From positions 1-64,000 of the forward strand of contig NZ_JAOPHT010000018.1 of assembly GCF_025515305.1 (NCBI RefSeq): a DNA stretch of 64,000 nucleotides, in the 5' to 3' direction. How positions within the stretch are numbered: position 1 is the first letter of the stretch; every line of letters begins with the position of its first letter. The notes under the pieces are model-generated. The model did no database searches, was not told the origin of the DNA, and saw only the letters and a list, made by a program, of their open reading frames with translations. Shown one piece after another: positions 2,024 through 59,126 of the stretch. Origin of the DNA: Roseicyclus sediminis. GTDB taxonomy: Bacteria > Pseudomonadota > Alphaproteobacteria > Rhodobacterales > Rhodobacteraceae. The translations under genes were made by a program, and so were the position numbers.

Positions 2024-2024
2024 G

Positions 2025-5209: not shown

Positions 5210-5226
5210 GTCCACCCTCCAGTCCA

Positions 5227-5530: not shown

Positions 5531-5538
5531 GCAGGCGG

Positions 5539-6978: not shown

Positions 6979-7113
6979 GTCTCCCCCCGCCGGTTCTTCA
7001 CGGCCTCACCCGGCGCGCCGCCACTCCTGCGGTCCGGGCGGCGTTTCTCGCCTTGTTATAGCGGACCTCTCCGCGAATGTAGACTGGCCGGGGCGACACA
7101 AGCCAGACACCGG

Positions 7114-7224: not shown

Positions 7225-7393
7225 TCAGCAGACGGCGTGCGGCCACAGCGAATTCGGCCCGACGCGGGTTGTGCGCGAGACCGCGCCCAAGCCGCGCGAC
7301 ATGGCGCACCCCGTGCCTGCCCCGCCCGGACCAACCGCTGGCGCATCGCCGTCGGCGGCGCGGAGAATGAGGCGGCCCTTTTCCCTTTCCGGT

Positions 7394-9207: not shown

Positions 9208-9216
9208 GGGGGTCTC

Positions 9217-10281: not shown

Positions 10282-10311
10282 CGCGCGCCTCCTGTTCACG
10301 GGCGTCCTCCC

Positions 10312-12314: not shown

Positions 12315-12452
12315 GGGCGGGGTCCTCGGGTGGTCCGGCTGGGGGCAGGCCCGTTGCAACGTGCGTCTCCACGCGATTTCGAAATCGCGCGGGCAAGGGT
12401 CTTGCAGGACCCTCGCGGCGGCGGTCGGTGGGGACGCGGGCAGCGCATGTCC

Positions 12453-16937: not shown

Positions 16938-16940
16938 GGC

Positions 16941-33227: not shown

Positions 33228-33301
33228 TGGAGCGGGTGGCGGGAATCGAACCCGCGCGTTCAGCTTGGAAGGCTGACAGGCTACCATTACATCACACCCG
33301 C
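33228..33301 (-). tRNA. tRNA-Gly (TCC anticodon)
   Basis: Full cloverleaf on the minus strand: acceptor GCGGGTG pairing with CACCCGC, D arm with GGTAG, anticodon stem GTCAG-type with loop CTTCCAA giving TCC, T arm GCGGGTTCGATTCCCGC, discriminator T and encoded CCA. It marks the border of the core chromosome and the right-hand island; tRNA genes like this are common integration sites. Confidence 0.93.
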
Positions 33302-33876: not shown

Positions 33877-33882
33877 GTGCCC

Positions 33883-36985: not shown

Positions 36986-37186
36986 TCGAGTTCACCTTAC
37001 TGGCGTCGCGCGGAACGACTTTAACCCGTACGCCTGCGTCCAGCCGCAAAGGACGGGCCGAAGCGACGCTCACTGAGCAAACCGCTGCCTTTCTACTTCA
37101 TCAAGCTAGTCATTCGCGAAGATGTTCTGCAATCTCTTGCGATCGAATGAAGGGTGTTCAGGATACGTCGGGCGGGTATCAACTTT

Positions 37187-38560
37187 ATGGCGAACATCAC
37201 GGGCACGAAGATGACACTCATCAACCTCCGTCACCAGCGGGCCGTTGGTCAAGGCTTCTTCCATACTGCCGAATTGCAGTCGGAGGACGGTCGGAATCTC
37301 CGATACGTCTACGATTGCGGAGCAATGAAGAAGTATGAGACGGCGCGCAACGCCTGTGTCGACGCGTATCTGCGAGATGTTGGCGCGAATGCTGTCTTGG
37401 ACATATTGTTCATTTCCCATATCCACTTCGACCACATCAGTGGAATCGAACGTCTGTTGGATAAAGCGAACGGACTAGCGGTAGATACCATCGTTATGCC
37501 GCTCATCAACGTCGTAGACCGCCTGTTTGCGTATGCGCGAGCTGCTAACGACGACCCCGTCTCGATCAGTGATCCGTTCTTTCGCGAACTGGTCGTGAAC
37601 CCCGTGAATGCACTGGGACGGTTGGGGCCACGGCAAATTCTGTTTGTCAGACGCGGATCGCCAGATGGTGGGGCGCCGGGCTCTAGAGTTGAGGATGATG
37701 ACGATCCGGATGGGCCGCGGGATATTCCTCGCGTTTGGGGAGGCGAACGCGATGGAGGCCTGTACTGGAAACTGATCGGTCGAGGCACAGGATACGAATA
37801 TCAGCAGCCGTTTACCGACTCGGACGGCACTGAGGCGGTCACACACGTCGCCGTGGTTGACGACACTCTGGCAATGGCGACGGCCGGTGGGGAAAGCTGC
37901 CCTGAGTGGGTGCTGTCCCCATTTGTTGATCCAACCATCAAGTCGAAAAAGGACCGGTTCCTGAGTGAGCTGGCCTTAGCTCGAAGAATGCCCGTTTCGG
38001 ATTTGAAGTCTTGGCTTGCGGATGAAGCAAATATTGTAGAACTACTGCTAACGGGTCTGCCCGACCTTACTGCAGCGTATGAAACTGTCGCGAGCGATTT
38101 CAATCTGACCTCACTATGTCTCTACTCGGGGCCCAAGACTAACGAGGGCGCAACAGAAGCAGTGTACCAAGCCCGCCTCGGTTCGTATTTTCTAGGACCA
38201 ACACTGCGCCAAGAAATTGGATGGATCGCCACAGGCGATGCTGCGCTGAGTACAAAGATACGTGCCAAGATTTTTTTAAAGCACTACGGTGGCCATATAG
38301 AGAGTGTCGGCACTTTGACTGTTCCACACCATGGATCGGATCATAATCACAATTCAGAATTAATTATGAAGATTGACGCATTTGTCCATGTCGTGGCTGC
38401 TGACACTTATTCGAAGTGGAGGCATCCGGGGAGTAAGATTATGCAATGTGTTGCTTCAATCGGTCGCTTCCTCTCGGTTGTAACGAGCAACACGAAATCG
38501 GAAGTCGAGGAGGCCGCTTTCGTCAGATGCTCGGCGAAAAAGAAGCCAACGACAGAATAG
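37187..38560 (+). CDS. Metallo-beta-lactamase-fold hydrolase
   Basis: A 457-residue MBL-fold protein. Metal motif 1 is ISHIHFDHISGIERL near residue 85; a later motif VPHHGSDHNHNSEL near 395 resembles ComEC/stand-alone MBL domains of conflict systems. Between them is a long 200-residue insert with acidic runs. Starts at 37154 (GTG), 37187 and 37211 are all possible; none has a strong ribosome site. It follows SIR2-HerA on the same strand after a 200-base gap, so it may be an added defence component or a separate gene. Noticeably lower GC than the core. Confidence 0.7.
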   Translation: MANITGTKMTLINLRHQRAVGQGFFHTAELQSEDGRNLRYVYDCGAMKKYETARNACVDAYLRDVGANAVLDILFISHIHFDHISGIERLLDKANGLAVDTIVMPLINVVDRLFAYARAANDDPVSISDPFFRELVVNPVNALGRLGPRQILFVRRGSPDGGAPGSRVEDDDDPDGPRDIPRVWGGERDGGLYWKLIGRGTGYEYQQPFTDSDGTEAVTHVAVVDDTLAMATAGGESCPEWVLSPFVDPTIKSKKDRFLSELALARRMPVSDLKSWLADEANIVELLLTGLPDLTAAYETVASDFNLTSLCLYSGPKTNEGATEAVYQARLGSYFLGPTLRQEIGWIATGDAALSTKIRAKIFLKHYGGHIESVGTLTVPHHGSDHNHNSELIMKIDAFVHVVAADTYSKWRHPGSKIMQCVASIGRFLSVVTSNTKSEVEEAAFVRCSAKKKPTTE

Positions 38561-40555: not shown

Positions 40556-42022
40556 ATGACTTCGTCCCTGGCATGCATCGACCTGTTCGCGGGCTGCGGC
40601 GGCCTTTCCCTCGGCCTTAAGCGGGCCGGCTTCGAGGTTAAGCTAGCAGTCGAAAAGTCCCCCATGGCTGCCGAGACCTACTACCACAACTTCGTTGAAC
40701 CGATCTGCGACCCTGCCAAGTGGAACGACCACCTCGGGCTGTCGACGCTGGAACAGGCCCATAGGGGCTTAGTCGTCGATGCCCTGGAGGAGGTCCTCGG
40801 ATCGGAAGAGCTCCTGCGGGAATTGAGGGCTGCCGGCATCGACCTCGTCGCGGGAGGCCCTCCTTGCCAGGGTTTCTCGCTGGCGGGGCGCCGCAATCCG
40901 GGTGACATTCGCAACGAGCTGCCCTGGCAATTCCTCGAATTCGTTGAACGCGTCGAGCCGAAGGCCGTTATCATCGAGAACGTCGCGGGCATGCGGCACG
41001 ACTTCAGGAAACACGGTGCGAGGTCACCCTTCGAGGACCTTAGGATTGCGCTTTCACGTACTGGGCCGGGCTACGCTGTTCAGCCGATGGCGCTCAACGC
41101 CATGCATTTCGGGGTCCCACAACACCGACCGCGGGTGTTTCTCGTCGGCCTCCGACGAGACCTCGCGGATGCGGAAGGCGTGCGGGTCACGACGGACACC
41201 TGGCTCTCCCAGAACGAAACACCCCATGAGCCGCAAGTCCCCAGCCGCCCTGCCCTTGCCCCCAGCCGAACCCACTTCGGCACAGGCCATCGACAGCACC
41301 TCACGGTCAAGGACGCGATCTCCGATCTTGGGAACGAGGGATATCTCTTTGACCAGCCATTGACGGATTACGCACGGGAAATGAGGACGAACGAGCCATT
41401 GCTGAAGAGCGAGGATGACAAGCTCGAAAACACCCCAAGCCTGCATAACCACGTGCTCCGCTCACATTCGGACCTAGTGAGGCGAAGGTTCGAGTTCTAC
41501 CAGTTCTTGCGCGATGCCCGGATCGATACGCGGCTCCTATCCCTGCCTTTGAGAACAGATGTATTTGACGCCGAGCGGCGAGAGATGATCCACGATGCGA
41601 TCAAGGGGCTAGAGTTCCCGCTTATGTTGGAAAATGGCAAGACCATTGCCAGAAGCAAGGGCGCGCTCGTTCGCCTCGTGAACCGCCTCGCGACGAAGAA
41701 GCACAGCCAGCGAGCTCTCTCTCTCGACAGCCCTGCGCCAACCGTCGTCAGCCTACCCGATGACTACGTGCACCCGACGGAAGCGCGCACGCTAACGGTG
41801 CGGGAGATGGCCAGGTTCCAGTCGTTTCCCGATGCATTCGAGTTCAGGGCCAAAGAGACAACCGGTGGTACGAAACGGCGCACGGAGGTGCCGCAGTACA
41901 CGCAAGTTGGCAACGCCGTACCCCCGAAACTCGCCGAGGCGCTCGGCCGGAGGCTGGCTTCAATCATCTCGACTGCTCGCTTTGAAGAGCACCGCGGAAA
42001 AGGTGATGCTGCGGTAGCTTAA
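40556..42022 (+). CDS. DNA (cytosine-5) methyltransferase
   Basis: A 488-residue C5-methyltransferase. Motif I DLFAGCGGLSLGLKRAG, motif IV GGPPCQGFSLAGRRN with the catalytic Cys near residue 104, motif VI IIENVAGM, motif VIII FGVPQHRPRVFLVG, then a target-recognition region of about 200 residues, and motifs IX-X (LTVREMARFQSFP, QVGNAVPPKLAEALG). Complete. Target sequence cannot be read from the protein. The neighbouring glycosylase and DUF3883 remnant suggest a former restriction-modification unit. Confidence 0.95.
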   Translation: MTSSLACIDLFAGCGGLSLGLKRAGFEVKLAVEKSPMAAETYYHNFVEPICDPAKWNDHLGLSTLEQAHRGLVVDALEEVLGSEELLRELRAAGIDLVAGGPPCQGFSLAGRRNPGDIRNELPWQFLEFVERVEPKAVIIENVAGMRHDFRKHGARSPFEDLRIALSRTGPGYAVQPMALNAMHFGVPQHRPRVFLVGLRRDLADAEGVRVTTDTWLSQNETPHEPQVPSRPALAPSRTHFGTGHRQHLTVKDAISDLGNEGYLFDQPLTDYAREMRTNEPLLKSEDDKLENTPSLHNHVLRSHSDLVRRRFEFYQFLRDARIDTRLLSLPLRTDVFDAERREMIHDAIKGLEFPLMLENGKTIARSKGALVRLVNRLATKKHSQRALSLDSPAPTVVSLPDDYVHPTEARTLTVREMARFQSFPDAFEFRAKETTGGTKRRTEVPQYTQVGNAVPPKLAEALGRRLASIISTARFEEHRGKGDAAVA

Positions 42023-43202: not shown

Positions 43203-45947
43203 TCAGCTCTTTTCCTCTACCCACCACACGCTCTTCTTGGTGTGACCATCCTTCCGGGTGCGCAACACGAGGCCACCGGCGACCCTGTCCTTGCGGTAAC
43301 TCAGGGCCTTGCCAATCGTCGATGCAGAGCGAGTGGTTTGCTCGTTGATCGCAACAAGGGCTTCCCACAACGCGTGGGCAGTACCCGGGCCTTTGACACC
43401 CGGCTCTTGGCGAACCGACTGGTAGACATCGGCAGCGAGAAACTCCCGTTCACCGTACCGCTCACGAAGCGCGACGAGGAGGTCCGTGTGGAGTTCCAGG
43501 TCGGGATCGTGTTCCAGCGCGCGTGATACTGCTTCAAGCGGGTCGGCGAACGAACCCTGTCCGATATCATCGGCGATCCAGCACACGGTGTTCCTCACGA
43601 GGTCACTCCACCCCTCGAACGATGCCATGCGACCGACGAGTTTTTCAGCGTCGCTTGAGAGGCAGCCCCGCAGGACCGTGAGCGCAGCGGCGATCAATTC
43701 CACGCGGTGCTCGCGCACGTGAACCAAGGGGTCTAGGTCGAAACTCCTCTTGAAGGGCTGGTCCGTCCTCGGGTCGATACGACAAACCAGTATCCGGCGC
43801 ACCAAGTCTCCCTGCAGGGTGAGGTTGTTGCCCGTGAACATGAAGAGCGACTTGTTCGGGACCGTGATGACCTCGGAACGGCCCAGCACGCGGTCCGTGA
43901 ACTTCTCGCTCGTGAGGGCGGCCGCCAGCGAGGCAGAGTCGAAGGTGCCTAGGACGTTGTCCCACACCATAGCCTTGGCGCCAGTCCTGAGGAAGGACAT
44001 GAGCCGTTTTCGCACTTCCTCGTCGTCGCGTCCGCTCGCGTGGGGGTAAACGACTGGATCGTGGTCCCCGGAGAGAACGGCAACGCACTGCGCGAGCAAC
44101 GTCTTGCCGCTGCCCTGCACTGGAGCGTCGAAACCGAAGCCGGGGCATGTCGGCAGGATGCCCCGCACCGCGGCCGAGAGCAGGGCGGCAAGGAAGATGC
44201 CACGGTCTAGCGGCTCCACGAAAGGGAAATCCTCGAAGGGCTTCATCAGGGTAGCCAACGCCTTCTCCACCTCGCGCGCGGAGGGTGATATCGGGATCGC
44301 AACCTCGGGATCGTCGGGGGCGCGGTGGTAGTACAGCTTGGTTTCGGCGTCGTATCCCGGCGCGTCGAGGATCGTGCCATCCGGCCGCAGCGAGGGAGCC
44401 GTTATCACTGCGTCGAGCGACTTGAGGCCACGAATTCGGCCAAGCGAAATGATGCGCTTCACTAGGTTCGCAGGAGGGTCCCTATGGATGAGGTTCCCGC
44501 GTGCATCAAAACCCTGGTACTGGATTATGCCACCGAGTTTCTGCTCTAGGCGGTACTGTTCGAGAGGATGCAAATGGCCATCGATCAGCCATGCAAGCTC
44601 GTCGCCGAAATCGTAGAAGGCAGGATGGTGTCGAAGGACGTCTAGCGTCTGGTTTACGGCCTTGTCGAGCTCGCCCTTCAGGATCGTGATGAACACTTGG
44701 CCGCGTTCGAGGAAGTACGTGACGCCACCGTGCGCGAAGCTGTGTAGAGTTTTCTTGGTGCCGCCCAGGAATAGTCTTCCGACAATACGTCCGCCGTCAT
44801 AGCCGGGCTCGAAGGCGTCGCGGGTCTTGGCGCCGTTATACTTCGCCGGGGCATCAAGCACCTCACCGACGGTTACCTTACTCACCTCGCCGTCAACCTC
44901 CACCTCGAGGACGAAATCGCCGGGGAGACGCCGCGTGTCCAGGGCACGCCTCACGCTCTTCTTCGCTGCCTCAACCGCGTCGTCGTCGGCACCTGGTCCA
45001 GCGATTTCGCGGGCTCGCTCACCGACATATGCTTCGCGCACCGTGGATGCCTCCTCCTGCCTCCCAACGCGCGCCCTGCCCTGTAGGGACTCGAGGAGGT
45101 CCCGCTCGTGAGCGTTGAGGTCGGGAAGCGCCTTCGACGTGTCCACGCGATCGCTGCCGCCCGGATGTAACCGTGGCCTGCCCCGGTCTTGGAGAAGCGG
45201 CTCTTCGCAATGCGCACCACCCGCGAAATCGAGGCGATTCGCCTGCCAAACACCCGCGTCAGCCAGCGTCCGGAGCAGCATCGTTCCGGACTTGCTGACC
45301 TTGACGTAGCCGTGGCCAGCGAGCCAGAGGCGGTCGAAAAGGACTTGCCCTGCCCTCAGGATGTCGCTGCCGTCTTCAACCATGATGTAGAGCCGCTGCC
45401 CGCGTAGGCGCGACACCCATTCACCGGTGTCCCGGTTCTTGATCCACGAGGAGGACGAGGCCCATGACAGGATGTCGACCTGTGCCAAGCCGGGCACGGC
45501 CGACCTGATCGCGGCCACTAGCGCATCGGTCGAGAGGGCCTCGCCCCCCTCCTCCGGGTCGTAGTCGATCATCATGATCGCAGGGCCGTCGGGCCAGGAA
45601 AACGTGTCGAGCGTCCTGGCGGCCGTGTCCGCCGGCTGGCCCTGCCGCTCCCAACTCGATTTCGTGGTCAGCTCGAGCGGCGACGTCTCGGCGATGCCGT
45701 AGATGAGTGCCTGCGATGTCGACAGCCCCTCGAGGATCGCCGAAAAATCGCGTAACGACAGGACCTCCCGATGCTCGGCGAGCCCGGCAGACATTTGGCC
45801 GCCGGGCTCCATACGGAGAGTGCCATCCATAAGTTGAATGCGCTTCGAGATAGTCCCTGGCCGCTTCGTGGTGACAACAGTCAAACGTCCGGACTGGACT
45901 TGGTCGGGGCTATCTTGGAGATCTGTCATGGTCAAAGATCTCGCCAT
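43203..45947 (-). CDS. Fused AEP primase-helicase of the second element
   Basis: A 914-residue protein (908 if the ATG at 45929 is used, which avoids overlap with the gene before). N-terminal half: IMMIDYDPEEGG acidic motif, RGQRLYIMV, NRLDFAGG and the SFAHGGVTYFL block near residue 405. C-terminal half: Walker A DAPVQGSGKTLL near 614, AMVWDNVLG near 660, LTSEKFTDRVLG and FTGNN. Both halves match the separate primase (2025-3293) and helicase (230-2023) of the left element, so this is the same replication module in fused form. Role: replication initiation of the element (inference). Confidence 0.78.
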   Translation of the reverse strand: MARSLTMTDLQDSPDQVQSGRLTVVTTKRPGTISKRIQLMDGTLRMEPGGQMSAGLAEHREVLSLRDFSAILEGLSTSQALIYGIAETSPLELTTKSSWERQGQPADTAARTLDTFSWPDGPAIMMIDYDPEEGGEALSTDALVAAIRSAVPGLAQVDILSWASSSSWIKNRDTGEWVSRLRGQRLYIMVEDGSDILRAGQVLFDRLWLAGHGYVKVSKSGTMLLRTLADAGVWQANRLDFAGGAHCEEPLLQDRGRPRLHPGGSDRVDTSKALPDLNAHERDLLESLQGRARVGRQEEASTVREAYVGERAREIAGPGADDDAVEAAKKSVRRALDTRRLPGDFVLEVEVDGEVSKVTVGEVLDAPAKYNGAKTRDAFEPGYDGGRIVGRLFLGGTKKTLHSFAHGGVTYFLERGQVFITILKGELDKAVNQTLDVLRHHPAFYDFGDELAWLIDGHLHPLEQYRLEQKLGGIIQYQGFDARGNLIHRDPPANLVKRIISLGRIRGLKSLDAVITAPSLRPDGTILDAPGYDAETKLYYHRAPDDPEVAIPISPSAREVEKALATLMKPFEDFPFVEPLDRGIFLAALLSAAVRGILPTCPGFGFDAPVQGSGKTLLAQCVAVLSGDHDPVVYPHASGRDDEEVRKRLMSFLRTGAKAMVWDNVLGTFDSASLAAALTSEKFTDRVLGRSEVITVPNKSLFMFTGNNLTLQGDLVRRILVCRIDPRTDQPFKRSFDLDPLVHVREHRVELIAAALTVLRGCLSSDAEKLVGRMASFEGWSDLVRNTVCWIADDIGQGSFADPLEAVSRALEHDPDLELHTDLLVALRERYGEREFLAADVYQSVRQEPGVKGPGTAHALWEALVAINEQTTRSASTIGKALSYRKDRVAGGLVLRTRKDGHTKKSVWWVEEKS

Positions 45948-47990: not shown

Positions 47991-48947
47991 ATGTACGACA
48001 TCATCCCTGACATCCACGGCCAGGCAGAGAAGCTGAAGCACCGGCTCGCAAGCCTAGGCTACCACGACACCGGCGGCGCATGGCGCCAACCAACGGTGAC
48101 CCGCACCGCTGTCTTCCTCGGTGACTTCATCGATCGAGGCCCCGAGAACGCCGAGGTGATCGATATCGTCCGACGCATGGTCGACGCCGGTTCCGCTCGC
48201 GCTGTCATGGGTAACCACGAGCTCAACGCGATCCGCTACCACACCGAACACCCTGAAAGCGGTGAGCCTCTGCGCGCTCGGTCAGAAAAGAACACCAAGC
48301 AACACCGGACCTTTCTCGAAGAGTACCCAGTCGGAGCATCGAAGACGCGTGACGTCATCGATTGGATGCGATCGCTACCACTGTTCCTAGAGACCGATGA
48401 ATTCCGCGCCGTCCACGCCTGCTGGGACGAAAGCCACGTCTGCGAGATCAAGACGTCGGCCGGTGACGGTATTCTCCACGAGGAGCTACACGTCGAGGTC
48501 GCAGACCCGCGGCACTTACTTCACGACGCCGTGGAGACGACGACAAAGGGACCGGAGTTTCCGCTCCCGAAAGGGTACGGTTTCCATGACAAGGATGGGG
48601 TCAAGCGCGACTACATCCGTGCCAAGTGGTGGTCTGCCAAGCCAAGGACGTGGCACGACATCGCGATGTCCGTGCCGGAGCCGAACGAGCTCCCTCCAGG
48701 CGAGCCACCGGCAGGGATCGTGGAGCGGAGCTACCCGGCCAACGCGAAGCCGGTGTTCTTCGGGCACTACTGGTTGACGGGGCGCCCGGTCATACAAGCG
48801 GCGAACGCGCTCTGCCTTGACTACTCGGCTGGCAGGGAAGGTCCGCTTGTTTCTTACCTCTTTATGCCCGGAGACAAGGAACTCCGGCTGGAGAGGATCA
48901 CAGTTGGTGGTCAGGGTGGCTCCGGTCCGCGCGGAGCATGGGCATGA
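47991..48947 (+). CDS. Calcineurin-like metallophosphoesterase
   Basis: A 318-residue protein of the Ser/Thr phosphatase-like superfamily. Metal motifs: PDIHGQAEKL, FLGDFIDRGPEN, VMGNHELNA, then a His-containing RAVHACWDE and GHYWLTG near the C-terminus. The long insert after GNHE differs from lambda-type protein phosphatases. AAGGAG ribosome site. Substrate may be a phosphoprotein, nucleotide or RNA cap (ApaH-like group); unknown here. Confidence 0.85.
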   Translation: MYDIIPDIHGQAEKLKHRLASLGYHDTGGAWRQPTVTRTAVFLGDFIDRGPENAEVIDIVRRMVDAGSARAVMGNHELNAIRYHTEHPESGEPLRARSEKNTKQHRTFLEEYPVGASKTRDVIDWMRSLPLFLETDEFRAVHACWDESHVCEIKTSAGDGILHEELHVEVADPRHLLHDAVETTTKGPEFPLPKGYGFHDKDGVKRDYIRAKWWSAKPRTWHDIAMSVPEPNELPPGEPPAGIVERSYPANAKPVFFGHYWLTGRPVIQAANALCLDYSAGREGPLVSYLFMPGDKELRLERITVGGQGGSGPRGAWA

Positions 48948-49926: not shown

Positions 49927-52900
49927 CTACTCGAAGAACTCGAAGTAAGGCTTGTCCCGCATAGACGTGCCGGACATTAGGTCCGGCTCGGTCTTGAATA
50001 TCGAGTGAAGCGGTTCGAGCTGCGGCACCTGCTCTGCAAGTGCAGCATTGTCACCAGTGAAGCCGATACCTTGTAGGTCCTTTGCGCTTATCCGGGGCAC
50101 CTTGTGGATGCACCAGGTCAAGAGCGGCTGCGACCAGTCAATACTGCTTTGCTTGAAGTGGGAGAGGTACTGCGATGACAGGACGACGCCCATCCCGAAC
50201 TGGCGCCCCTGCAACATCAGCTGATTAAGGACCTCGAAATCGTGCGCCATGATGTGATGTGCCTCGTCCACCAAAAGGAACGAGTCGATCAGCCGCCGCT
50301 GCACGCCATTGGCATCCTTGCGCAGCACCTTGGGCCGACTTGGCATGTACTCGGAAAAAAGCAGGTCTATCAGGAGAATGACCAGCACGCTCTGAACGTG
50401 GGCGCCAGCCTGCATGCCCTTGAGATCAACAACCACCGTGCGATCGAACAGCTCTTCGATCGTAAGGAGGTTCCCCCTGTCGGTCTCGAAAACCTCCAGA
50501 TCGACAAGGTCCGAAAGCGCAGATGTAACAGAGTCGGGTGTCGGAACTTGTTCGCGGTACATCTCGAGGATGTCGCTGACCAGGGGATACTCCCCGTCAC
50601 CAAAATACTCGTAGGCGCGCTGCACGCAATCGACCAAGCGCTGCCGCTGGACGGTGCCAATGCGGTTAACCTTATCGATGACGTCCGCGAAGAACCGCGC
50701 CCTCGCCTTGTATGCATTTTTCTTCGCATCCCTTGGAAGCGCAAAGAAGTTCAGCGGGATTGGTTCATCCCCAGGGGCCAAGAGCTTGCCGTTCACGCTC
50801 TCGAGGAACTCTTCGTCGATGTAGTCAGTCTTGTAGTCGAAGATGAATGCTTTTGGTGGCCGGCCACCATTGTCGTCTGCAGATTGCGAAAGCTGGTAGA
50901 CGAAAGAGCGCAGAAACTGGGTCTTACCGGTGCCAAGGTCTCCCAGGACACCCATGTTCAGCTGGTTCACCGCCGTGTTGCTGGGATCGAAGACGACCTT
51001 CTCGGACTTGGTTCCAGACGCGCGCGTCCCAACATGGATTTTTACTCCGTCGAGTGTCTCATCCTCCTGCTCCCGGGGCTTTTCCGGAGGTTTCTTAACG
51101 AAATCTCTTTCTGAGGGTCGCGAATGATCACCGGTGCCAACAAGTTGCGTCGGCACGTCAACAGACGGGTGCGAGCCGTCGCTACCAGTGCCTTGGTCTC
51201 CATTTGGATGCTCGGCGGACTGAACTCCTCTTTGGTCGCCTTGGTTCTCATTCTTCCCTTCTGTGTCGATAGCAGGATCGGTGCCAGGGCGGCTTTCATC
51301 GCAACGTCCGATCGCGTCTCGGTCGAGGGCCCTGGTGAAGGGTGCGTGGGCCTCGCTCGGCTCGTCGGCCACCAGAGCATTTCCATAATGGAGCGGGTTC
51401 AAAAGCACCTGCCAAGGATCAGCACCGTCCCCGACACGTTCTTCGATTGGCCTGCTTCCCAGCGATTGCCCGCCTGCTTGGAACCAGAAAAGCGTACCCG
51501 TCGAAGTATTCACGTCACAACGACCCTCTGCTACCGCGTTCAGAAAATCACGTTCCTTCTCGACCTCGCCACGCTGATCCTCGAGCCCTGTGACGGCGCG
51601 GATGGAGAGCGCCGCTTCCAACAACGATGCGACCGCATTGTTAAGCAAGACGTCGTCCCCATCGTTGACACGTGCCGCCAGGCTCGCCAGCAACTTCGAC
51701 GAATTCGCGAGCTGGCCTAGCGCTTCTTCTATTTGGCTTGATCGCGGCGAGGGGAAATTCCCGTCATCCGAACGCATTTTCACTTCCACGGGGTGCAGGA
51801 TCACGGCGTACGTCCCATCGTCATGCTTCCTGGCCCTCACGGCCAGAACGTCAGCCCTCCGCCTGTCGTCGGGTTTCCAATCTTCGCCGGCAATGGCCTC
51901 GAGAACGGGATGAATTGCATCCATCGGGAGAATGCAGCGAATGTCATCGTCGCTGTTCCGTTCTTCCCAGTCCTTGAGGGCCCTGAACGCGAGGAAGAAG
52001 CCTATCGCTCCCGAAGTCTGCGTGTGACCAATCGACAGCAGCGAAGATAACCCGATACCCCGCGTTCCAAGCTCCGTAAGGACCTGCTGCGCAGAAGACT
52101 TCGCGGTTTCCCCAAGTGCCTTGCGGCAATCGTCCTCCAACTCCTGCCGGAAGAAGTCATCGAGCCTTGAAATCGTGATGTAAGGACGTGCAGTTGCAAC
52201 GCTTGAACGAGACGTGTTCTCCAACCGCGCGAGAAAGGCCGGTCGCCATTCCCAGAGGACCAACTCCGAGCTGATCTGTCCGAGCTCCCTCGAAAGGTTC
52301 GCTGGATCCATGTGGGCATTGCCAGAGACAGTCCAACGCGCGGTGGACCCCGTTAGCGCGGGCACGCCTGCCAGCCGGCAGCTTACTCGGGGAAGGCTGT
52401 CGTGCGAAGCCAGCGTCTCGAGCTCGTGCAGGCAGTGACCGTAAAACCTCAGGTCTTGAAAGCTGTTCTCCGGCAAAACCGGGCAGTAGGCCGAGCGTTG
52501 GGTACCGGATCCTTCTCGCGACCAAACGATTTGCCGGTTAATCGGAAGGCGCGGCGCTGCGCCGTCCGGTTTCTCTTGCCCGGTTGACCCGACTTCAACT
52601 CGCACGAGGGGGGTTTCCAAGAACTGTACATCCAGATCCCCGGTGTCCGCAGTTGCCCACTCGATGTGCGGCGTACGCGCAGAACGGTCAGTTCCACGGC
52701 GAGCACTGGAGATCGTATCCTCGATCGACGCTATGACTGCCTCCGGTTCGGGAAGTTCACCAAGCCTATTCGGGCTGTCGTAGATCCTTACGCCGCCGGG
52801 CAAGCGTCCCATACCATCGGCCAATTCACGTCCAACGGCGTCGATCAATGCTTGGTCGAGCTCCGTGGCCCGCTCAACTTTGTCCGCCGCATGAAGTCCG

Positions 52901-55578
52901 ACGTTCAATTGGGTCACTAGCGGGTTTACCCGCAAGAAGTCCCTAAGAGCTGAAGCCACCCCGCCACGATCCAGCCCGGATGCAGCACCAAATGGAAAGC
53001 GACGACCTAGAATCGTGGGTATCGTACCGGTGCCGTTTCGGGTAGCGCGCCTTGCTGCCAGGAATGACCATGCCGAGAACACGCCGTTAAGCTTTGGATC
53101 GAGGGGAACGGAAAGCAGGTGCTCTTCTTCCACGGACGGCGCGATCAAGGGAAAGCCTAGCCCGTCAACGAAACGAAGCAGGTCATGCACCTCCCTGCTG
53201 CTCCGAGTGCTCAGCGCGTTTGCCGCGCTATTCTGCACCGACCACGACCAACCAAGGCGAAGCGGATGCAAAGGTGAAAGCAGGATACCTTCAAGGTCTC
53301 CGCCCGCAACGATCGGGATCGAGAACGGAAACGCGAGCAACATGCTGGGCTGGAATGCATGTGCCTGCCCGAGCAATTTTCCATACGCTTCCAAGTAGTT
53401 CTCGACTTTGCCCTTATCGAGCAACCTGAGGTCCAGTCGGCTCGGCCAAGCGGCCGGTCCACCACTAGCCCCGGCGATTTCTCCCAAGCCAAGCTCTTGG
53501 AACCCTCGCCAAAAATCTTGGACCTCATCCAAGTCCGCGATTCCGTCCTGCAGTCGCGGTGCACCTGGAACGGTGCCGGCGGCGAAATACCCCATCGAGG
53601 CGTCGAAGCTCGGCTCAACACTCCGGGTCTGCCTTTCCGCGGCGACGGCCAAGATCCCAAGCGACCCAGGGTGTGCGGGCGTCGCGGGGCCAAGCACGAA
53701 TTCGGATGCGAGCCATTTCTCCAGGTCGCAGCGAGGGTCTCGCTCCAACTCTTCCATGATCGATCCGTCGATATCGTTGGCGACTGCCTCGTTGGTGGCG
53801 CATGCGGTAAATGGAGAGAGGTGCTCTTCGGAAACCTCCGGCACCTGAATGTCCACTATGTGTCCGCCAAGGGTCAGTTGCAGATCCACATCGGCACGCA
53901 GAGGTTCGCTGCGACTGAGCGGGAGCTCCTCGTTGTGCACTTCCGTGATATCGGGTTGCCACTCCCTGTCGGCGCTGGAAAGCGTCAATGGAGCATCCAG
54001 ACCGGCTGATATTACTTCGAAGCTAGCCGTCGATTTGCCCAGCTTGAAAAGAGGCGTCTCGTCGCGCCCGATTTCAACCGGAACGATCTTGCCGTCGTTA
54101 ATCGAGTACTTGGTCGTACTGTGAGATAGCAGTCTGGCCTTCGCCGATTTTCCCCGGGGATGTTCAACCAACCAAGTGGAGCCCCTACCCGGGTGGGCGA
54201 TTACTAGTTGTATCGTGGCTTTTCCTCGCAAGACTTCACGAGCGCTGTCGGACTGGGGCGTTGCGGTGATCTTGCTAGGGTTCTCCCTCCAAGTTCCGCC
54301 GGGAAGACGTAGCTCGAGGTCAAATACCAAGAGTTTCTTATCGCCGCTGGGCTCTACGCGAACATTTTCTGCCACGAGGGCTCGCGGATTGCAGTCTACT
54401 TCGAAGCTAGGCGCGACGCCGTCAAATTGCGCGGAATACGGCAACTCGAACCCGAAAGTTCCCAGCCACTGCTTGTTCCCTCGATCGAAATCCGCGTCAC
54501 GGACCGCCAGCACGTGTACGCGATTGCTGGCATCAAGGCCGGGTACACATGGAAGAGGCACGAGACCATCCTCGTCGAGACGCCCCAGCAAGATGTCATC
54601 GCTGTCGACAACGGCTCCTGAAAAGAAGGCCGTCTCGCTCGTACTGGCCCAACCATCCAGCCAGTCATTGCTACCATGTCCGTGAAAACAGCACGCCAAC
54701 ACCGGGTGACGAAGGCGTGCGCGGGTCGCAGCCAAGTCTTCCCATTCCAATCGCGCCAAGGAATGTTCCGCGTCGGCCGCCAGCCGCTTCGCCTTCCGTT
54801 CGATGTCGCGAATGTCCTTGATCGCAGCCTCAGCCGAGTTGCTACTGCCCCACCTTTCGCCGATGATCTTGGCAAATTTCTTGCCAGAATTGGTACGAGA
54901 ATAAACACCGGCCGTTTGGTTGTCCGGAATCGGCAGACCTGCCGCTGCGTATACCGCGATCACCATCCGGTTGAGCCCGTGGGCGGATGGAAGTGCCTGG
55001 CCCACGGAGGTCAGCTTGGACAGCATCGTGTCGACGTGCCGCCACCAAGCATCGGTCCAGTTTACTTCGTCGTTTCCAACCGCGCGGTAGGCGTCCAGTA
55101 GGAACAAGAGAACGGTTTTGAGAATGCCGGCTAACCTTGAACGCTGAGCGTCGTTCGTGGCCAGGTCCGGACACAGCAACGCCACCTCTTCCAAAAGCGT
55201 GGCTGACTGGAGCTCGCCCTCGCCTTCTTCCAGTAGCCCAGATGGCAAGCTCCCGGGATTTGCCAGCCGGAAAGCCTCCAGTGACTTGAGCTCCTTGAAC
55301 TCGCCTTGCTGGTGGACAAGGAGCGCGTTCGCAGACTTGCCGTCTTCCCTCGTCCTTACCTTGATGGCTTCTTCAGGGGAAATTTCACCTTCCGACGGCG
55401 ATTGCCGCACCACGTGTGCGAATTGCGCTTCGCCACGAGTGGCGTTCGCAGATTTCGCCACTTCAGCGGCGACTTCGGGGTCAAGGCCCGCGGGCAGTTG
55501 CAGGCGCGTGAGCCCGGCGGACTTCGCCATTACCCGCCCCAAGGCTCTTGCCAACAAGTGATTTCGTGCTTCGCTCAT
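49927..55578 (-). CDS. DptH-like giant protein: PD-(D/E)XK candidate plus HerA-like ATPase
   Basis: An 1883-residue protein, last of a three-gene operon. The N-terminal ~1200 residues are mixed alpha/beta with no clear motif. Around 1240-1265, ADVLAVRARK followed by VILHPVEVKMR gives the Asp ... Glu-x-Lys spacing of a PD-(D/E)XK nuclease. A low-complexity linker (about 1390-1500) leads to the ATPase: Walker A GVLGDLGTGKTQFL near 1546, FDYKTDYID, Walker B FLLVDEAHHIM near 1772, and LSSQYLSHF, as in HerA/FtsK. Length, place and ATPase type fit DptH of phosphorothioation-dependent restriction. No dndA-E genes are nearby. Low GC relative to core. DNA translocation with cleavage is inferred. Confidence 0.65.
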   Translation of the reverse strand: MSEARNHLLARALGRVMAKSAGLTRLQLPAGLDPEVAAEVAKSANATRGEAQFAHVVRQSPSEGEISPEEAIKVRTREDGKSANALLVHQQGEFKELKSLEAFRLANPGSLPSGLLEEGEGELQSATLLEEVALLCPDLATNDAQRSRLAGILKTVLLFLLDAYRAVGNDEVNWTDAWWRHVDTMLSKLTSVGQALPSAHGLNRMVIAVYAAAGLPIPDNQTAGVYSRTNSGKKFAKIIGERWGSSNSAEAAIKDIRDIERKAKRLAADAEHSLARLEWEDLAATRARLRHPVLACCFHGHGSNDWLDGWASTSETAFFSGAVVDSDDILLGRLDEDGLVPLPCVPGLDASNRVHVLAVRDADFDRGNKQWLGTFGFELPYSAQFDGVAPSFEVDCNPRALVAENVRVEPSGDKKLLVFDLELRLPGGTWRENPSKITATPQSDSAREVLRGKATIQLVIAHPGRGSTWLVEHPRGKSAKARLLSHSTTKYSINDGKIVPVEIGRDETPLFKLGKSTASFEVISAGLDAPLTLSSADREWQPDITEVHNEELPLSRSEPLRADVDLQLTLGGHIVDIQVPEVSEEHLSPFTACATNEAVANDIDGSIMEELERDPRCDLEKWLASEFVLGPATPAHPGSLGILAVAAERQTRSVEPSFDASMGYFAAGTVPGAPRLQDGIADLDEVQDFWRGFQELGLGEIAGASGGPAAWPSRLDLRLLDKGKVENYLEAYGKLLGQAHAFQPSMLLAFPFSIPIVAGGDLEGILLSPLHPLRLGWSWSVQNSAANALSTRSSREVHDLLRFVDGLGFPLIAPSVEEEHLLSVPLDPKLNGVFSAWSFLAARRATRNGTGTIPTILGRRFPFGAASGLDRGGVASALRDFLRVNPLVTQLNVGLHAADKVERATELDQALIDAVGRELADGMGRLPGGVRIYDSPNRLGELPEPEAVIASIEDTISSARRGTDRSARTPHIEWATADTGDLDVQFLETPLVRVEVGSTGQEKPDGAAPRLPINRQIVWSREGSGTQRSAYCPVLPENSFQDLRFYGHCLHELETLASHDSLPRVSCRLAGVPALTGSTARWTVSGNAHMDPANLSRELGQISSELVLWEWRPAFLARLENTSRSSVATARPYITISRLDDFFRQELEDDCRKALGETAKSSAQQVLTELGTRGIGLSSLLSIGHTQTSGAIGFFLAFRALKDWEERNSDDDIRCILPMDAIHPVLEAIAGEDWKPDDRRRADVLAVRARKHDDGTYAVILHPVEVKMRSDDGNFPSPRSSQIEEALGQLANSSKLLASLAARVNDGDDVLLNNAVASLLEAALSIRAVTGLEDQRGEVEKERDFLNAVAEGRCDVNTSTGTLFWFQAGGQSLGSRPIEERVGDGADPWQVLLNPLHYGNALVADEPSEAHAPFTRALDRDAIGRCDESRPGTDPAIDTEGKNENQGDQRGVQSAEHPNGDQGTGSDGSHPSVDVPTQLVGTGDHSRPSERDFVKKPPEKPREQEDETLDGVKIHVGTRASGTKSEKVVFDPSNTAVNQLNMGVLGDLGTGKTQFLRSFVYQLSQSADDNGGRPPKAFIFDYKTDYIDEEFLESVNGKLLAPGDEPIPLNFFALPRDAKKNAYKARARFFADVIDKVNRIGTVQRQRLVDCVQRAYEYFGDGEYPLVSDILEMYREQVPTPDSVTSALSDLVDLEVFETDRGNLLTIEELFDRTVVVDLKGMQAGAHVQSVLVILLIDLLFSEYMPSRPKVLRKDANGVQRRLIDSFLLVDEAHHIMAHDFEVLNQLMLQGRQFGMGVVLSSQYLSHFKQSSIDWSQPLLTWCIHKVPRISAKDLQGIGFTGDNAALAEQVPQLEPLHSIFKTEPDLMSGTSMRDKPYFEFFE

Positions 55579-55596
55579 TTGATCCTTGGTAATGGT

Positions 55597-57129
55597 TTAG
55601 AATGATGCTTGGACTTCAATGGCCTCGTCGGCATCGTGGCTTCCACGAGCAAGACCGCTCGCCTCGAGACGGCGAATGATGGAAGGTATCGGTGGCTGCA
55701 GGCGAAGGCTCGCAAGGCTGTCGGCTATGTCAGCAACGCGTATCGGTTTGGAGGGTCCAGTAGACGCAAGCCCACCAAGCGCGACGAGCCACTCCTGTCC
55801 GGGATCAACAACGAAATATCGCCCTCGCCGGTTCAAGAGCGCATAGTGGTCTTGCGCCGAAGGCCCTTCCGACCGTTCACGCAACGAGTAAAGGATCGTT
55901 TCGTCGACGTTTTTCGCCGGCCTTAGGTCTCCAGCACCTTCCATCGCGGCAGCAATCTCCCGGACCGTTTTCTTTATGCCGCGCTCGTTTGCCCAAGCCC
56001 GAGCTACCTGCAGCCAAGAACCGAGGCCGTCCTGCTGGTCCTCGTGATCACTAGGAGAAGGGCAGTTCTCGCTCTGTATCCATCCTTCGAGTAGCTTGGC
56101 AGCGGCGGTGCCTTCGCGAGCGGCACCGCGAACCTGCTCGCGAACGCACCTGTCTGAAACTCGTGCAGTGTCGTCCCACCGGAGGAGGGGCTGACCATCT
56201 GCAAGTGCAGCTCGCAAAACAGCTTCTTCCGACCTTTCATCCCCGACTGACAATACCATTGTTCGAACGAGGTTCATCTCGAACAGGTACCCCATGCCAA
56301 GGCTTGTACGCAGAACGCTTGACGCCCAGTCCACCCAGCGCCGCCGCGGCATTCGAGCCGTCCATCCGTTCTCGCAAAGGTTCACCCAGCTCCTCGCAAA
56401 CCAGGTGTAGGGCGTATTCCTTCCGGCAAGCCACGCTGGCTGATTTCCTCCCGGGGCTGGGAAATCGCGCCCAAGTCCTTCCAGCGCTTTATCGCCTGCG
56501 ACTTGGACGTATGCAGGCGCCGCAGAACCAAGGATCGAGCTTAGCCACTTCGGATGGCCCTCCCCTTCGCGGGAGAGCGCGGAAACCAGCTGCTGCGCGG
56601 CCGAACCGCCACCACCGCCTAAGGCAAACATTCGTTCGAATATCGCCGCGTAGTTAGCCGGCCCCCGGGTTCTCAAAAGGCCCGAACTATCTTGAAGGAG
56701 CGCCGTGTAGAGATCGATAGGGACCGCCGCAAACGTCTTTGACTTCGTGGGTCGCAACGCGCGCAGATCGCGAACGAGGACCTGCGCGGCGTCACGGGCA
56801 TCATGCTCATTCGCGAAATCAAATTCGTCCCACAAGGCATCGACCAACCGTTCCCGCCGCTTGGTACCTTCAGCAGGCAAAGTGTAGCCGATGTCGAGAC
56901 GCGACCCGCCCTGGTCGTACCTATCGTACGCAACGGCTTGCCTAGCGGCTTCGCCGTCGTCCACGACAAGCTCGATCTTCGTACCCGTCGCCACTTGATC
57001 GACAAAACCCCAAACCAATGCCGATATGAGGGTTTCAGGCATGTTCGCGTATTGCGGACGATTGAGCCCTAGGAAGAGGCCCGACCCTTTTGACACGGCT
57101 GGCTGTCCAGCTCCGTCTGACCCTATCAT
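55597..57129 (-). CDS. DptG-like middle protein, unknown function
   Basis: A 510-residue soluble protein. I see no catalytic motif. The middle is helical, with an aromatic/Arg-rich stretch TARMPRRRWVDWASSVLRT; the last 80 residues (NRRGRYFVVDPGQEW, then SKPIRVADIADSLASLRLQP) look like a winged helix that could bind DNA. Its start overlaps the ATPase stop by ATGA, and the 1883-aa gene starts 18 bases after its stop, so all three are one unit. Position matches DptG. Confidence 0.6.
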   Translation of the reverse strand: MIGSDGAGQPAVSKGSGLFLGLNRPQYANMPETLISALVWGFVDQVATGTKIELVVDDGEAARQAVAYDRYDQGGSRLDIGYTLPAEGTKRRERLVDALWDEFDFANEHDARDAAQVLVRDLRALRPTKSKTFAAVPIDLYTALLQDSSGLLRTRGPANYAAIFERMFALGGGGGSAAQQLVSALSREGEGHPKWLSSILGSAAPAYVQVAGDKALEGLGRDFPAPGGNQPAWLAGRNTPYTWFARSWVNLCENGWTARMPRRRWVDWASSVLRTSLGMGYLFEMNLVRTMVLSVGDERSEEAVLRAALADGQPLLRWDDTARVSDRCVREQVRGAAREGTAAAKLLEGWIQSENCPSPSDHEDQQDGLGSWLQVARAWANERGIKKTVREIAAAMEGAGDLRPAKNVDETILYSLRERSEGPSAQDHYALLNRRGRYFVVDPGQEWLVALGGLASTGPSKPIRVADIADSLASLRLQPPIPSIIRRLEASGLARGSHDADEAIEVQASF

Positions 57130-59126
57130 GCAGTCAATCTCCTGCCATCGCTGGTGATGAACACGGCATCGCCCGAGCCCTTCGGGTCATGAAGTTTCAT
57201 CGAAAGGAGCCGAGCCCTCATCCTTTCGAGACGTGGCTCCACGTGGCGCAGCGAGTCTGTAAAACCGTTCCCTCGCTGTCTCGAAAGCGCCTCTCTCAGG
57301 AGATGAAAATCGAATGCCGTTTCCGCGTAATCATTGCTTCCGCGTTCCATGATCCGGACGACCATCTTCTCGCCGTTGGGAAGAACCTCGACCTCGAAGT
57401 CTTTGGGCCGAACCCTCATGGCCAAGTGCGGTTGGCTGAAGCCGGGGCTGTTTACCCGCGGCTTGAGTACGGGAAGCAAAGAAGACGAAGCGAACGCATG
57501 GTGGTCGTCCGTGCTGGGCAAAGCCACATCGCGGACCGCTTTCAAAATATCGTCCTTGATATGCTTTCCCGTGTTTAGGCGCAGACGTAGTTTCTGCCAC
57601 TCCGAGATAACCTGCGAGAAGGCTGGGCGGCCGGTTGAGACGCAGGCCAACCTCACGAGGTACTGGGCATACCACGCGAGCAACTCGGCACGATCAAAAT
57701 CGAATTGGCGCCGCGACATTGGATCGATCAGTGCAGCGATTGCGAGGTCCAACGCATCCTCAAGTGGGCTCCATGCTGCAACGAGGTTTGCGTCGAAAGA
57801 TCCGAGCTTTCCTTTCAACGGACGACCTTCTTTCACGTGGGAAACAAGCTCGAAAAGCTTTCTGCTTAACCCCGGATCCACGTCGAGCAAGGGGTCCGCG
57901 CGCATCATCGCCGAGACCGCGTCGTTCTCAGGCGTGCTTCCGGTCCAACGCTTGGCATCGAGCGGAAGACTGGCATGCAGGCCACCGAACATCGTGAGGT
58001 GCAGGCGAAGAGAGGCCAGCGAGACGAGCGAACGACATCTCTCCAGCTCATCCTTTGCGCCTTGCACTTCGTTGGCGCGTTCACGCACCCATGCCGCAAG
58101 TTCCCCTAGGGTACGACCACTGGTCGCCCCCACGACCGAAAGTACCGACAATCCCCAGAGGTCGCGGTAGGAGAAGTTGGAGCCCTCTATGAGTTCAGCT
58201 CCACGCAGGATCCGACACCAAGTATCGACGAGCGACGGTTCCTGTAGGTGGCGCACGTTTGCCAACACCGGGTCCAGCTCACCACCCGGCGGCCCGACAC
58301 CGATTTCCCGCGCGATGTTAGTGGCCAACTTGGACAGGGGCTGCTCGAATGCTGCGTGGCGAGCCTCTCGTTCTCGCCGATCTACGATCGGCGAGATCCT
58401 GTTTGGGAAACCCCCTTCATCACCGTCGCCAGAGAGTGGCTCAAGCAAGGAAAAGCTGTCCATGTAGACAGCCAGAAGCTCAAACCGATTGCCGGCCGGA
58501 GTCGTAACCTCGAACGACAGGTTCCCGGTCTGTGCACCCAGGGAAGGCACCAAGACCCACCCATCTTTCTCAACGTGTTCTCCGGCGTTCGCTTGAAAGG
58601 TACGAAGCAACAACTCTCCTGCAATGGCGTCAGCACCGGAGGCCTCGTCGATGGAAACGGCGTTGGTCTCCCCGATCAGCACGCCCCTGTTTACGCAAGC
58701 AAGCAGGTGTTCCGAGCTATCAAGGGCCGACGAAATCTCGCGTAGAAGCCCGCCCACGGACCGATCCTCGGTTGGGATGGTCGCATCGTTAATGATCCGT
58801 AGCGGCTGGCCGCTTGCTGTCTTGTAGAGGTAGCTACGTCGCGCGAAGGTTGTCGGCCTGTCGGTCTTAGTGGCTCCAGCTGCCTGAACGACGCGAGACG
58901 CCAAGAACGACTTCCCGTTGCCCGCACCACCTACGAGGAAGACCATGCAGCGCTTGCCGTCGCCATCCTTTCGGCAGCAAGCAGCAAGCTTTTCCACCGC
59001 CTCCAGCGAACCAGGCGCGGAAGGCCCATTGGGCCATTTGCCTTGCTCGTGAACTAGGCCAGGTGCGACTGCAACGTCCGCACCACCAAAGCCACGGTCA
59101 ATTATCCAATCTGGATAGCCATTCAT
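57126..59126 (-). CDS. DptF-like P-loop ATPase
   Basis: A 666-residue ATPase, first gene of the operon. Walker A VFLVGGAGNGKSFLA near residue 70; then RIINDAT, LLACVNRGVLIGE and FELLAVYMDSFSLLEP, an order that resembles DptF (NTPase of Dnd restriction) with Asn-Asp-Ala-Thr and (G/C)xNxGxL blocks. The rest is helical. The ATG at 59126 gives MNGYPDWIIDRGFGG and is preceded by GAGG; the longer frame has no protein character. Presumed sensor/loader of the restriction complex (inference). Confidence 0.62.
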   Translation of the reverse strand: MNGYPDWIIDRGFGGADVAVAPGLVHEQGKWPNGPSAPGSLEAVEKLAACCRKDGDGKRCMVFLVGGAGNGKSFLASRVVQAAGATKTDRPTTFARRSYLYKTASGQPLRIINDATIPTEDRSVGGLLREISSALDSSEHLLACVNRGVLIGETNAVSIDEASGADAIAGELLLRTFQANAGEHVEKDGWVLVPSLGAQTGNLSFEVTTPAGNRFELLAVYMDSFSLLEPLSGDGDEGGFPNRISPIVDRREREARHAAFEQPLSKLATNIAREIGVGPPGGELDPVLANVRHLQEPSLVDTWCRILRGAELIEGSNFSYRDLWGLSVLSVVGATSGRTLGELAAWVRERANEVQGAKDELERCRSLVSLASLRLHLTMFGGLHASLPLDAKRWTGSTPENDAVSAMMRADPLLDVDPGLSRKLFELVSHVKEGRPLKGKLGSFDANLVAAWSPLEDALDLAIAALIDPMSRRQFDFDRAELLAWYAQYLVRLACVSTGRPAFSQVISEWQKLRLRLNTGKHIKDDILKAVRDVALPSTDDHHAFASSSLLPVLKPRVNSPGFSQPHLAMRVRPKDFEVEVLPNGEKMVVRIMERGSNDYAETAFDFHLLREALSRQRGNGFTDSLRHVEPRLERMRARLLSMKLHDPKGSGDAVFITSDGRRLTA

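What the first reader, a model, noticed from the sequence alone, without database searches (positions are those of the whole stretch)
49927..59126. Stand-alone DptFGH-like three-gene ATPase operon without DNA-phosphorothioation genes
Seen: a tight operon (ATGA overlap, 18-base gap) of a 666-aa P-loop ATPase, a 510-aa protein without motifs and an 1883-aa protein ending in a HerA-like ATPase. Known: DptF-DptG-DptH (DndFGH) have this order, these rough sizes and these ATPases, but need DndA-E modification to mark self DNA. None of dndA-E is in the window; the neighbours are a sensor kinase, integrase pieces, a satellite module and defence genes. Inference: a diverged restriction system that recognises self in another way, or a family new to defence catalogues.
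Basis: partly seen in the sequence, partly recalled or inferred. Interest (0 to 1): 0.8.

Follow-up and report, generated by a model that had tools for sequence, protein, structure and literature searches.

The report
DndFGH-like restriction module with cytosine methylase
This is a three-gene bacterial DNA-restriction machine, related to one known to work with sulfur-marked DNA, that here appears to travel with a cytosine methylase and a matching DNA-repair enzyme, so the host probably marks its own DNA with methyl groups instead of sulfur.

Summary
The operon is real: F (666 aa), G (510 aa), H (1883 aa). H ends in a DptH-type HerA ATPase (E 4e-48 to PDB 7es4). Profile comparison with decoys supports homology of the H middle (with a P-x-EVK nuclease motif) to DptH and of the F P-loop half to DptF; G and the H N-terminus are undetectable. 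No dndC was found in the genome. Stand-alone DndFGH is already proposed in print (PMC10853773).

Ten of ten loci holding F, G and H also hold a C5 cytosine methylase, 7-539 bp away in nine; in the window 7.9 kb with a primase gene lies between. It is this genome's only C5 methylase. Eight of ten carry a gene for a T:G-mismatch enzyme: vsr in four, a MutY/MIG-like glycosylase in four (one a remnant). Five dptFGH comparison loci gave no C5 methylase hit. In one pair of loci FGH is 73-79% identical but the methylases differ.

Most likely a DndFGH-type machine whose self mark is 5-methylcytosine: a new variant of a known kind. Function is inferred, not tested.

The parts
57126..59126 (-). F: DndF-like P-loop protein, 666 aa (Walker A GGAGNGKS at 66, NDAT at 113, CVNRGVL at 144)
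   Evidence: N-half homologous to DptF, hhalign 38.3 against best of 20 shuffled decoys 17.7
55597..57129 (-). G: 510-aa protein in the DndG position, no detectable known domain
49927..55578 (-). H: DndH-like restriction/translocase protein, 1883 aa
51778..51861 (-). PD-(D/E)xK-like nuclease motif of H (residues 1240-1267, RRAD...PVEVK)
   Evidence: found in 10 of 10 loci of the clade; in 5 of 5 DptH compared; hhalign of this region 33.5 against best decoy 16.9
49930..51081 (-). HerA/FtsK-type ATPase domain of H (residues 1500-1883)
40556..42022 (+). C5 cytosine DNA methylase (PF00145; PPCQGFS and ENVAG motifs), the conserved partner and predicted self-marking enzyme; the only PF00145 gene found in the genome
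39616..40299 (-). MutY/MIG-like HhH-GPD glycosylase, divergent from the methylase; predicted T:G repair at deaminated 5mC (start at MTQERL is my reading; the longest ORF runs to 40665)
   Evidence: two other, weaker matches elsewhere in the genome
42023..49926 (.). 7.9-kb stretch between methylase and operon that the nine other loci lack; holds a phage/satellite-type primase-polymerase (43203-45947), a metallophosphoesterase (47991-48947) and small ORFs

Best explanation
The operon encodes a diverged DndFGH-type restriction machine, and its modification partner is the C5 cytosine methylase at 40556-42022. The methylase puts 5-methylcytosine in host DNA (inferred). The FGH complex loads on DNA: F binds a nucleotide, G and the H middle contact DNA, and the HerA motor of H translocates and feeds the DNA to the PD-(D/E)xK nuclease of H when the expected 5mC state is missing (inferred from domains and from DndFGH/SspFGH). 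Because 5mC deaminates to T, most loci also keep an enzyme that starts repair of T:G mismatches, either Vsr or a MIG/MutY-like glycosylase (genes shown, function inferred from family). Shown: gene content, linkage, motifs, homology of F (N-half) and H (middle and ATPase) to DptF and DptH, no dndC found in the genome. Not shown: any activity, the target motif, or how FGH reads the mark.
For: Ten of ten loci with all of F, G and H carry a C5 methylase: window, G162, Roseibium album, G1093, G331, S. fredii pSfreGR64a, R. leguminosarum pRL31b4, Shinella pZ25, Pseudoalteromonas HL-AS1, one IMG/VR contig. By the measure (between coding ends, stop codons left out, start codons chosen by me) the distance is 7-539 bp in nine and 7911 bp in the window; in four the methylase is the first gene on the same strand, 7-36 bp before F (with the annotated F start it is about 86 bp in S. 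fredii). A plasmid search with the window methylase (4455 records, best 25 listed) and one with window H (14 records) share S. fredii (rank 2 in the first list) and R. leguminosarum (rank 10), with the two matches 8-9 kb apart. Chance: C5 methylases number 78 matches in 61 genomes of the family (my sum of the column) and 1 in this genome, so by a rough estimate one within 10 kb is expected in about 1 locus of 150. Methylase catalytic motifs are present in 10 of 10. Vsr follows H in 4 loci plus a partial fifth; a MIG/MutY-like gene sits beside the methylase in 3 and as a remnant in a fourth. G331 and Pseudoalteromonas have F/G/H 75/79/73% identical but methylases 38% identical, at opposite ends of the operon: the methylase was exchanged and the presence of one was kept. 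Controls: of five dptFGH loci, three gave dndBCDE, one dndBCD at its end (L038), one shows only an annotated dndE at its edge (L025); none gave a C5 methylase hit, and none of the ten clade stretches gave a dndB-E hit.
Against: No activity is tested. In the G331/Pseudoalteromonas pair the methylase target-recognition regions cannot be aligned while the H middle stays 68-90% identical, so FGH does not look tuned to one methylase motif; a simple site-matched R-M scheme is therefore doubtful unless both methylases hit the same site. G and the H N-terminus show no detectable homology to DptG or DptH, nor does the C-half of F to DptF. Ten loci are few and fall in three lineages, so not all are independent. 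In the window the pair is no longer adjacent, so it is not certain that it still works together. G331 and Pseudoalteromonas have neither vsr nor the glycosylase in view, and the G162 glycosylase is a fragment. Both structure predictions gave unusable models (mean pLDDT 37.5 and 35.1). Absence of dnd genes in relatives was tested only in the fetched stretches.
Confidence: 0.72

Rival explanations
1. FGH is a stand-alone counter-invader system that needs no modification mark and senses invaders through nucleotides, proteins or DNA features (model of PMC10853773); the methylase is only a neighbour in a defence island.
For: Published model for DndFGH (sections read). The H middle does not follow the exchange of methylase. 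In the window other defence genes also lie nearby.
Against: A C5 methylase in 10 of 10 loci, 7-539 bp away in nine, against about 1.3 per genome; kept through exchange and change of side; T:G repair genes in the same short array in most loci.
Confidence: 0.17
2. The methylase and glycosylase (or Vsr) protect the element or host from other restriction systems, or act as a solitary epigenetic unit, and FGH co-travels as cargo of the same mobile islands.
For: Four loci are on plasmids, one on an IMG/VR contig, and the window has a phage-type primase gene between the parts.
Against: Co-directional first-gene position 7-36 bp before F in four loci suggests one transcript; methylases of two different groups sit with the same FGH type.
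Confidence: 0.07
3. FGH attacks 5mC-containing DNA (type IV-like) and the methylase is not its partner.
For: None direct.
Against: A linked active-looking methylase would make the host a target (motifs intact in 10 of 10).
Confidence: 0.03

Closest known systems
DndFGH / DptFGH (with DndABCDE phosphorothioation)
   Same: Order F-G-H, sizes, P-loop F, H with a P-x-EVK nuclease motif (5 of 5 DptH compared) and HerA ATPase in the same order, SPxHP motif in 3 of 5; homology of F N-half, H middle and ATPase
   Different: No dndB-E hit in any clade stretch and a C5 methylase instead; G, F C-half and H N-terminus not detectably related; F and G without DndF/DndG hits in PADLOC
SspFGH (with SspBCD)
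   Same: Three-gene FGH logic; window F weakly hits SspF (0.0018; 3 of 9 F members hit it, best 2.3e-6). SspFGH damages DNA lacking the mark, including the host's own (PMC8092258, passages read)
   Different: SspFGH uses single-stranded PT marks; SspB could not be properly tested here and SspD was not searched
MADS (methylation-associated defence system; PADLOC models mad1-8)
   Same: An FGH-like HerA protein with base methylation as the mark; window H hits mad8 at 8e-11
   Different: MADS-like locus L018 has an N6-type methylase plus specificity protein; here it is a single-chain C5 methylase and no specificity subunit was seen. The MADS paper itself was not read (recalled; one search listed two other papers)
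CXC-ABC-ATPase/DndE systems with cytosine methylases (PMC10853773, abstract and passages)
   Same: Cytosine methylation replacing PT in a Dnd-type setting
   Different: Those are built on DndD/CXC-DndE, not on DndFGH
C5 methylase plus repair enzyme pairs (Dcm-Vsr, M.MthTI-MIG; recalled)
   Same: Methylase beside a T:G repair enzyme
   Different: Here the pair is joined to an FGH restriction operon

Membership tests
DndFGH/DptFGH restriction module | Three adjacent genes in order F-G-H, G about 450-500 aa and H about 1700 aa | tested here: met
   666/510/1883 aa, overlap of 4 bases and gap of 18 bp
DndFGH/DptFGH restriction module | H with a C-terminal HerA/FtsK ATPase of DndH type | tested here: met
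   PADLOC DndH 4.9e-63, PDB 7es4 4.2e-48, hhalign 466 against best decoy 23
DndFGH/DptFGH restriction module | H with a REase domain before the ATPase | tested here: met
   P-x-EVK motif in 10 of 10 clade H and 5 of 5 DptH; hhalign of the region 33.5 against best decoy 16.9, of H 700-1440 43.3 against 21.7. Fold not confirmed: model mostly under pLDDT 50
DndFGH/DptFGH restriction module | H N-terminal inactive SNF2 P-loop, HTH and beta-sandwich domains | tested here: inconclusive
   hhalign 15.2, decoys up to 17.4
DndFGH/DptFGH restriction module | F a P-loop kinase with Asn in Walker B and a conserved acidic motif after strand 2 (as described in PMC10853773) | tested here: met
   All three patterns in 10 of 10 clade F. 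In four DptF compared the P-loop and DAT patterns were found in 4 of 4, the Asn pattern in 1 of 4. N-half hhalign 38.3 against best decoy 17.7
DndFGH/DptFGH restriction module | F C-terminal alpha+beta domain | tested here: inconclusive
   hhalign 17.8, decoys up to 17.3
DndFGH/DptFGH restriction module | G a triple winged-helix protein related to DptG | tested here: inconclusive
   hhalign 16.1, decoys up to 19.4; model pLDDT 37.5 unusable; of nine G members one hits JetA (6.5e-4) and one PDC-S70 (0.015) in PADLOC
DndABCDE-DndFGH phosphorothioation R-M system | PT-modification genes dndBCDE present | tested here: not met
   No dndC match in the genome; no dndB-E tblastn hit in any of the ten clade stretches
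SspABCD-SspFGH | SspB (DUF4007) and SspD present | tested here: inconclusive
   PF13182 no hit in the genome, but it rang in no control either; SspD not searched
C5 methylase-based R-M system | A C5 methylase with catalytic motifs genetically linked to the restriction genes | tested here: met
   10 of 10 loci
C5 methylase-based R-M system | The mark protects host DNA from the linked nuclease | not testable with these tools
   needs an experiment

The most novel reading that the evidence does not exclude
FGH is a restriction chassis that can be re-keyed: phosphorothioate, and here 5-methylcytosine from exchangeable C5 methylases, serve as the mark for related FGH machines. Because one FGH type kept its DNA-contacting parts when its methylase was exchanged for one with an unrelated recognition region, the machine may read the presence or density of 5mC rather than a methylase-matched site, unlike ordinary type II R-M.
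Probability: 0.33. Interest if true: 0.85.

Novelty: new variant of a known kind. Interest (0 to 1): 0.68.

Why it matters
PMC10853773 argues that DndFGH lacks an inbuilt modification module and proposes several sensing routes for how it finds invaders (sections read). A DndFGH-type clade with its own C5 methylase makes the question of self-recognition testable in a compact system: remove or exchange one methylase and ask what FGH cuts. It would also mean that related FGH machines accept chemically unrelated marks (sulfur in the backbone, methyl on a base). In four loci the methylase, F, G, H and vsr lie in one array of about 11 kb, small enough to clone. A 2021 survey counted dndFGH only within 30 ORFs of the dnd modification genes (PMC8569181, passages), so it would have passed over such loci.

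Tried and rejected
Structure prediction of G and of H 560-1440 with three-row alignments gave mean pLDDT 37.5 and 35.1; the models were not used and no fold search was run. Single-sequence BLAST found only the ATPase shared with DptH, so profile comparison with reversed and column-shuffled decoys was used (clade alignments of all 10 loci; DptH from 4 of 5 comparison loci, DptG from 3, DptF from 3 plus the Priestia F). The scan of genome contigs used two short peptide patterns and gave one relative; it is not exhaustive. A plasmid search with G alone found nothing.

Hits set aside from the count of ten. No F and G seen: L017, L026, L029, L030, L032 (one large gene or a truncated view, ATPase only), L045 (71-residue fragment), L046 (HerA alone at a contig end). 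Other systems: L018 (MADS-like), L033 (Priestia dptF-dptG-H beside Dam and AlwI), L025, L027, L028, L031, L038 (dptFGH comparison loci). L037 is a partial member whose record starts inside G, so its methylase place is not visible. The third phage hit, MT835906, was not fetched. CP002245 is a second record of the S. fredii plasmid; L050 is the same contig as L036. The 13 plasmids behind the 14 records thus fall into 4 clade members, 4 dptFGH loci, 4 without F and G in view, and Priestia. In L023 the H N-terminus may be a separate ORF; L019 F has an N-terminal extension. Alignment A4 held 8 of the 10 H proteins; A8 and A9 held 9 of the 10 G and F; the matrices hold all 10.

Considered and rejected: ordinary Dnd restriction (no dndC); chance neighbourhood (base rate); direct repeats as ends of the 7.9-kb insert (only an 11-base match); copies of the tRNA-Gly ends as island ends in the window (none).
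Full report
F (57126-59126), G (55597-57129) and H (49927-55578) are intact on the - strand, with a 4-base overlap and an 18-base gap. H residues 1500-1880 match DndH models (4.9e-63) and the solved DptH ATPase 7es4 (4.2e-48). F hits SspF only weakly (0.0018) and G has no significant hit. The genome, 4.14 Mb and 99.99% complete, has no dndC match (the model passed its cut-off in none of the 14 controls, so there was no positive control). The stretch from 33.7 kb on is poorer in G+C (57-61% in the parts measured) than the first 33 kb of the window (67.7%).

Relatives changed the picture. In genome G162 of the same family the operon (H 47, G 52, F 42% identical) is followed, tail to tail, by a C5 cytosine methylase 59% identical to the one at window 40556-42022. 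The one relative found in the GTDB contigs, Roseibium album CECT 5095, has F-G-H, the convergent methylase and a divergent HhH-GPD glycosylase gene. G1093 has the same five genes. A plasmid search with the window methylase (4455 records, 25 listed) and another with window H (14 records) share two rhizobial plasmids. There, and in Shinella and one IMG/VR contig, the order is methylase-F-G-H-vsr. G331 has methylase-F-G-H and Pseudoalteromonas HL-AS1 F-G-H-methylase.

Count: 10 of 10 loci that hold F, G and H hold a C5 methylase, at 7-539 bp in nine by the measure; none of the ten stretches gave a hit to dndB, C, D or E. Of five dptFGH comparison loci, three gave dndBCDE (L027, L028, L031), one dndBCD at its end (L038) and one shows only an annotated dndE at the edge of the stretch (L025); none gave a C5 methylase hit. 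The methylase is the only PF00145 match of the genome; in 61 genomes of the family there are 78 matches and 26 genomes have none (78 is my sum of the column). From this I estimate roughly 1 chance in 150 per locus of a C5 methylase within 10 kb; the ten loci are related, so these chances cannot simply be multiplied.

The repair genes point to what the mark is. Vsr acts on T:G mismatches left by 5mC deamination beside Dcm, and MIG of Methanothermobacter does so beside M.MthTI (both recalled). Four loci have vsr directly after H, with a fifth, partial one (L037). The glycosylase is present in the window, Roseibium and G1093, and as a 92-residue match in G162, with ORFs that look to me like transposases (not searched) about 1 kb away. 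The window protein matches MutY N-domains (4e-30) and MIG 1kea (3e-26), is too short for a MutY C-terminal domain, and is additional to two weaker matches elsewhere in the genome. Two unrelated enzymes for the same lesion in the same array suggest that 5mC is really made there. G331 and Pseudoalteromonas have neither in view.

Exchange of the methylase is the most telling comparison. G331 and Pseudoalteromonas are 75, 79 and 73% identical in F, G and H, but their methylases are 38% identical, sit at opposite ends of the operon, and cannot be aligned in the recognition region; the G331 methylase is closer (48-51%) to the window group, the Pseudoalteromonas one (45-46%) to the vsr group. So a methylase was replaced and the presence of one was kept. 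The same comparison speaks against a simple site-matched R-M scheme, because the H middle stays 68-90% identical along its length.

Membership was tested with profile comparison and decoys. Homologous to DptH or DptF: H 700-1440 (score 43.3, best of 20 column shuffles 21.7), the nuclease region (33.5 against 16.9), the ATPase (466 against 23) and the F N-half (38.3 against 17.7). Not detectable: H N-terminus (15.2 against 17.4), F C-half (17.8 against 17.3), G (16.1 against 19.4). The nuclease motif occurs in 10 of 10 clade H and 5 of 5 DptH, SPxHP in 10 of 10 and 3 of 5. I therefore call F and H diverged DndF and DndH; G is unproven. Two structure predictions gave unusable models.

Literature. 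Rakesh, Aravind and Krishnan (PMC10853773; abstract, the DndF, DndG, DndH and capture-system sections and the first part of the implications section read, with passages) already argue that DndFGH is decoupled from DndABCDE and stands alone without an inbuilt modification module; in what I read they report cytosine methylases only with the CXC-ABC-ATPase/DndE systems. A later paper of related authors describes another HerA-based capture system (PMC12839542, passages). SspFGH damages DNA lacking the PT mark, the host's own included (PMC8092258, passages). Searches for DptH with cytosine methyltransferase and Vsr (0 papers), for 'phosphorothioation-dependent restriction' with cytosine methyl (0), for DndFGH with 5-methylcytosine (13 papers, titles and abstract starts seen) and for HerA, Vsr and related words (5 papers, listing seen) showed no report of a C5-methylase-linked DndFGH in titles or abstract starts; full texts were opened only where named here. 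The library holds only open-licence papers and supplements were not available.

Verdict. A DndFGH-type restriction operon whose modification partner is most likely a C5 methylase, with T:G repair as an accessory: a new variant of a known kind. The clade is rare: whole-genome searches found it in 2 of 292, 2 of 398 (where two further genomes matched by the ATPase only), 1 of 385, 1 of 78 and 2 of 394 genomes (where two further matches were not members). Each draw except that of 78 includes the window's own genome, the draws overlap, and whether G162 was drawn cannot be seen, so these figures are lower bounds.

Noticed in passing
window 33877-36985: SIR2-like protein plus HerA ATPase pair (PADLOC SIR2 5e-81, HerA 7e-149), a separate defence module beside a tRNA-Gly (33228-33301).
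   Followed up: partly
window 37154-38560 and L015:7865-9196: Metallo-beta-lactamase-like, LmuA-like protein near the system in the window; a gene with a like PADLOC hit directly follows H in G331. Could be an accessory effector.
   Followed up: partly
L018 (G321), 818-11533: mad7/SspG-like gene, N6-type methylase, type I-like specificity protein and a 1755-aa DndH-like protein without the P-x-EVK pattern: a MADS-like relative in which methylation is again the likely mark.
   Followed up: partly
L033 (Priestia megaterium plasmid), 3621-17104: dptF-dptG-H with no dndB-E hit in view, next to a Dam methylase and an AlwI-family endonuclease; its H lacks the P-x-EVK pattern.
   Followed up: partly
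L026:14330-17341 and L030:14159-17095 (Vibrio plasmids): Proteins of about 1000 aa annotated as UvrD-helicase or DUF87 domain, ending in a DptH-type HerA domain, beside mobI in conjugation regions; possibly a source of captured HerA domains.
   Followed up: no
window 43203-45947: 914-aa protein with PHROG DNA primase and DNA polymerase/primase matches, in the stretch between methylase and operon.
   Followed up: partly
L023:4964-6705 (Pseudoalteromonas HL-AS1): Class I SAM methyltransferase and HNH endonuclease genes just upstream of F, besides the C5 methylase downstream of H.
   Followed up: no
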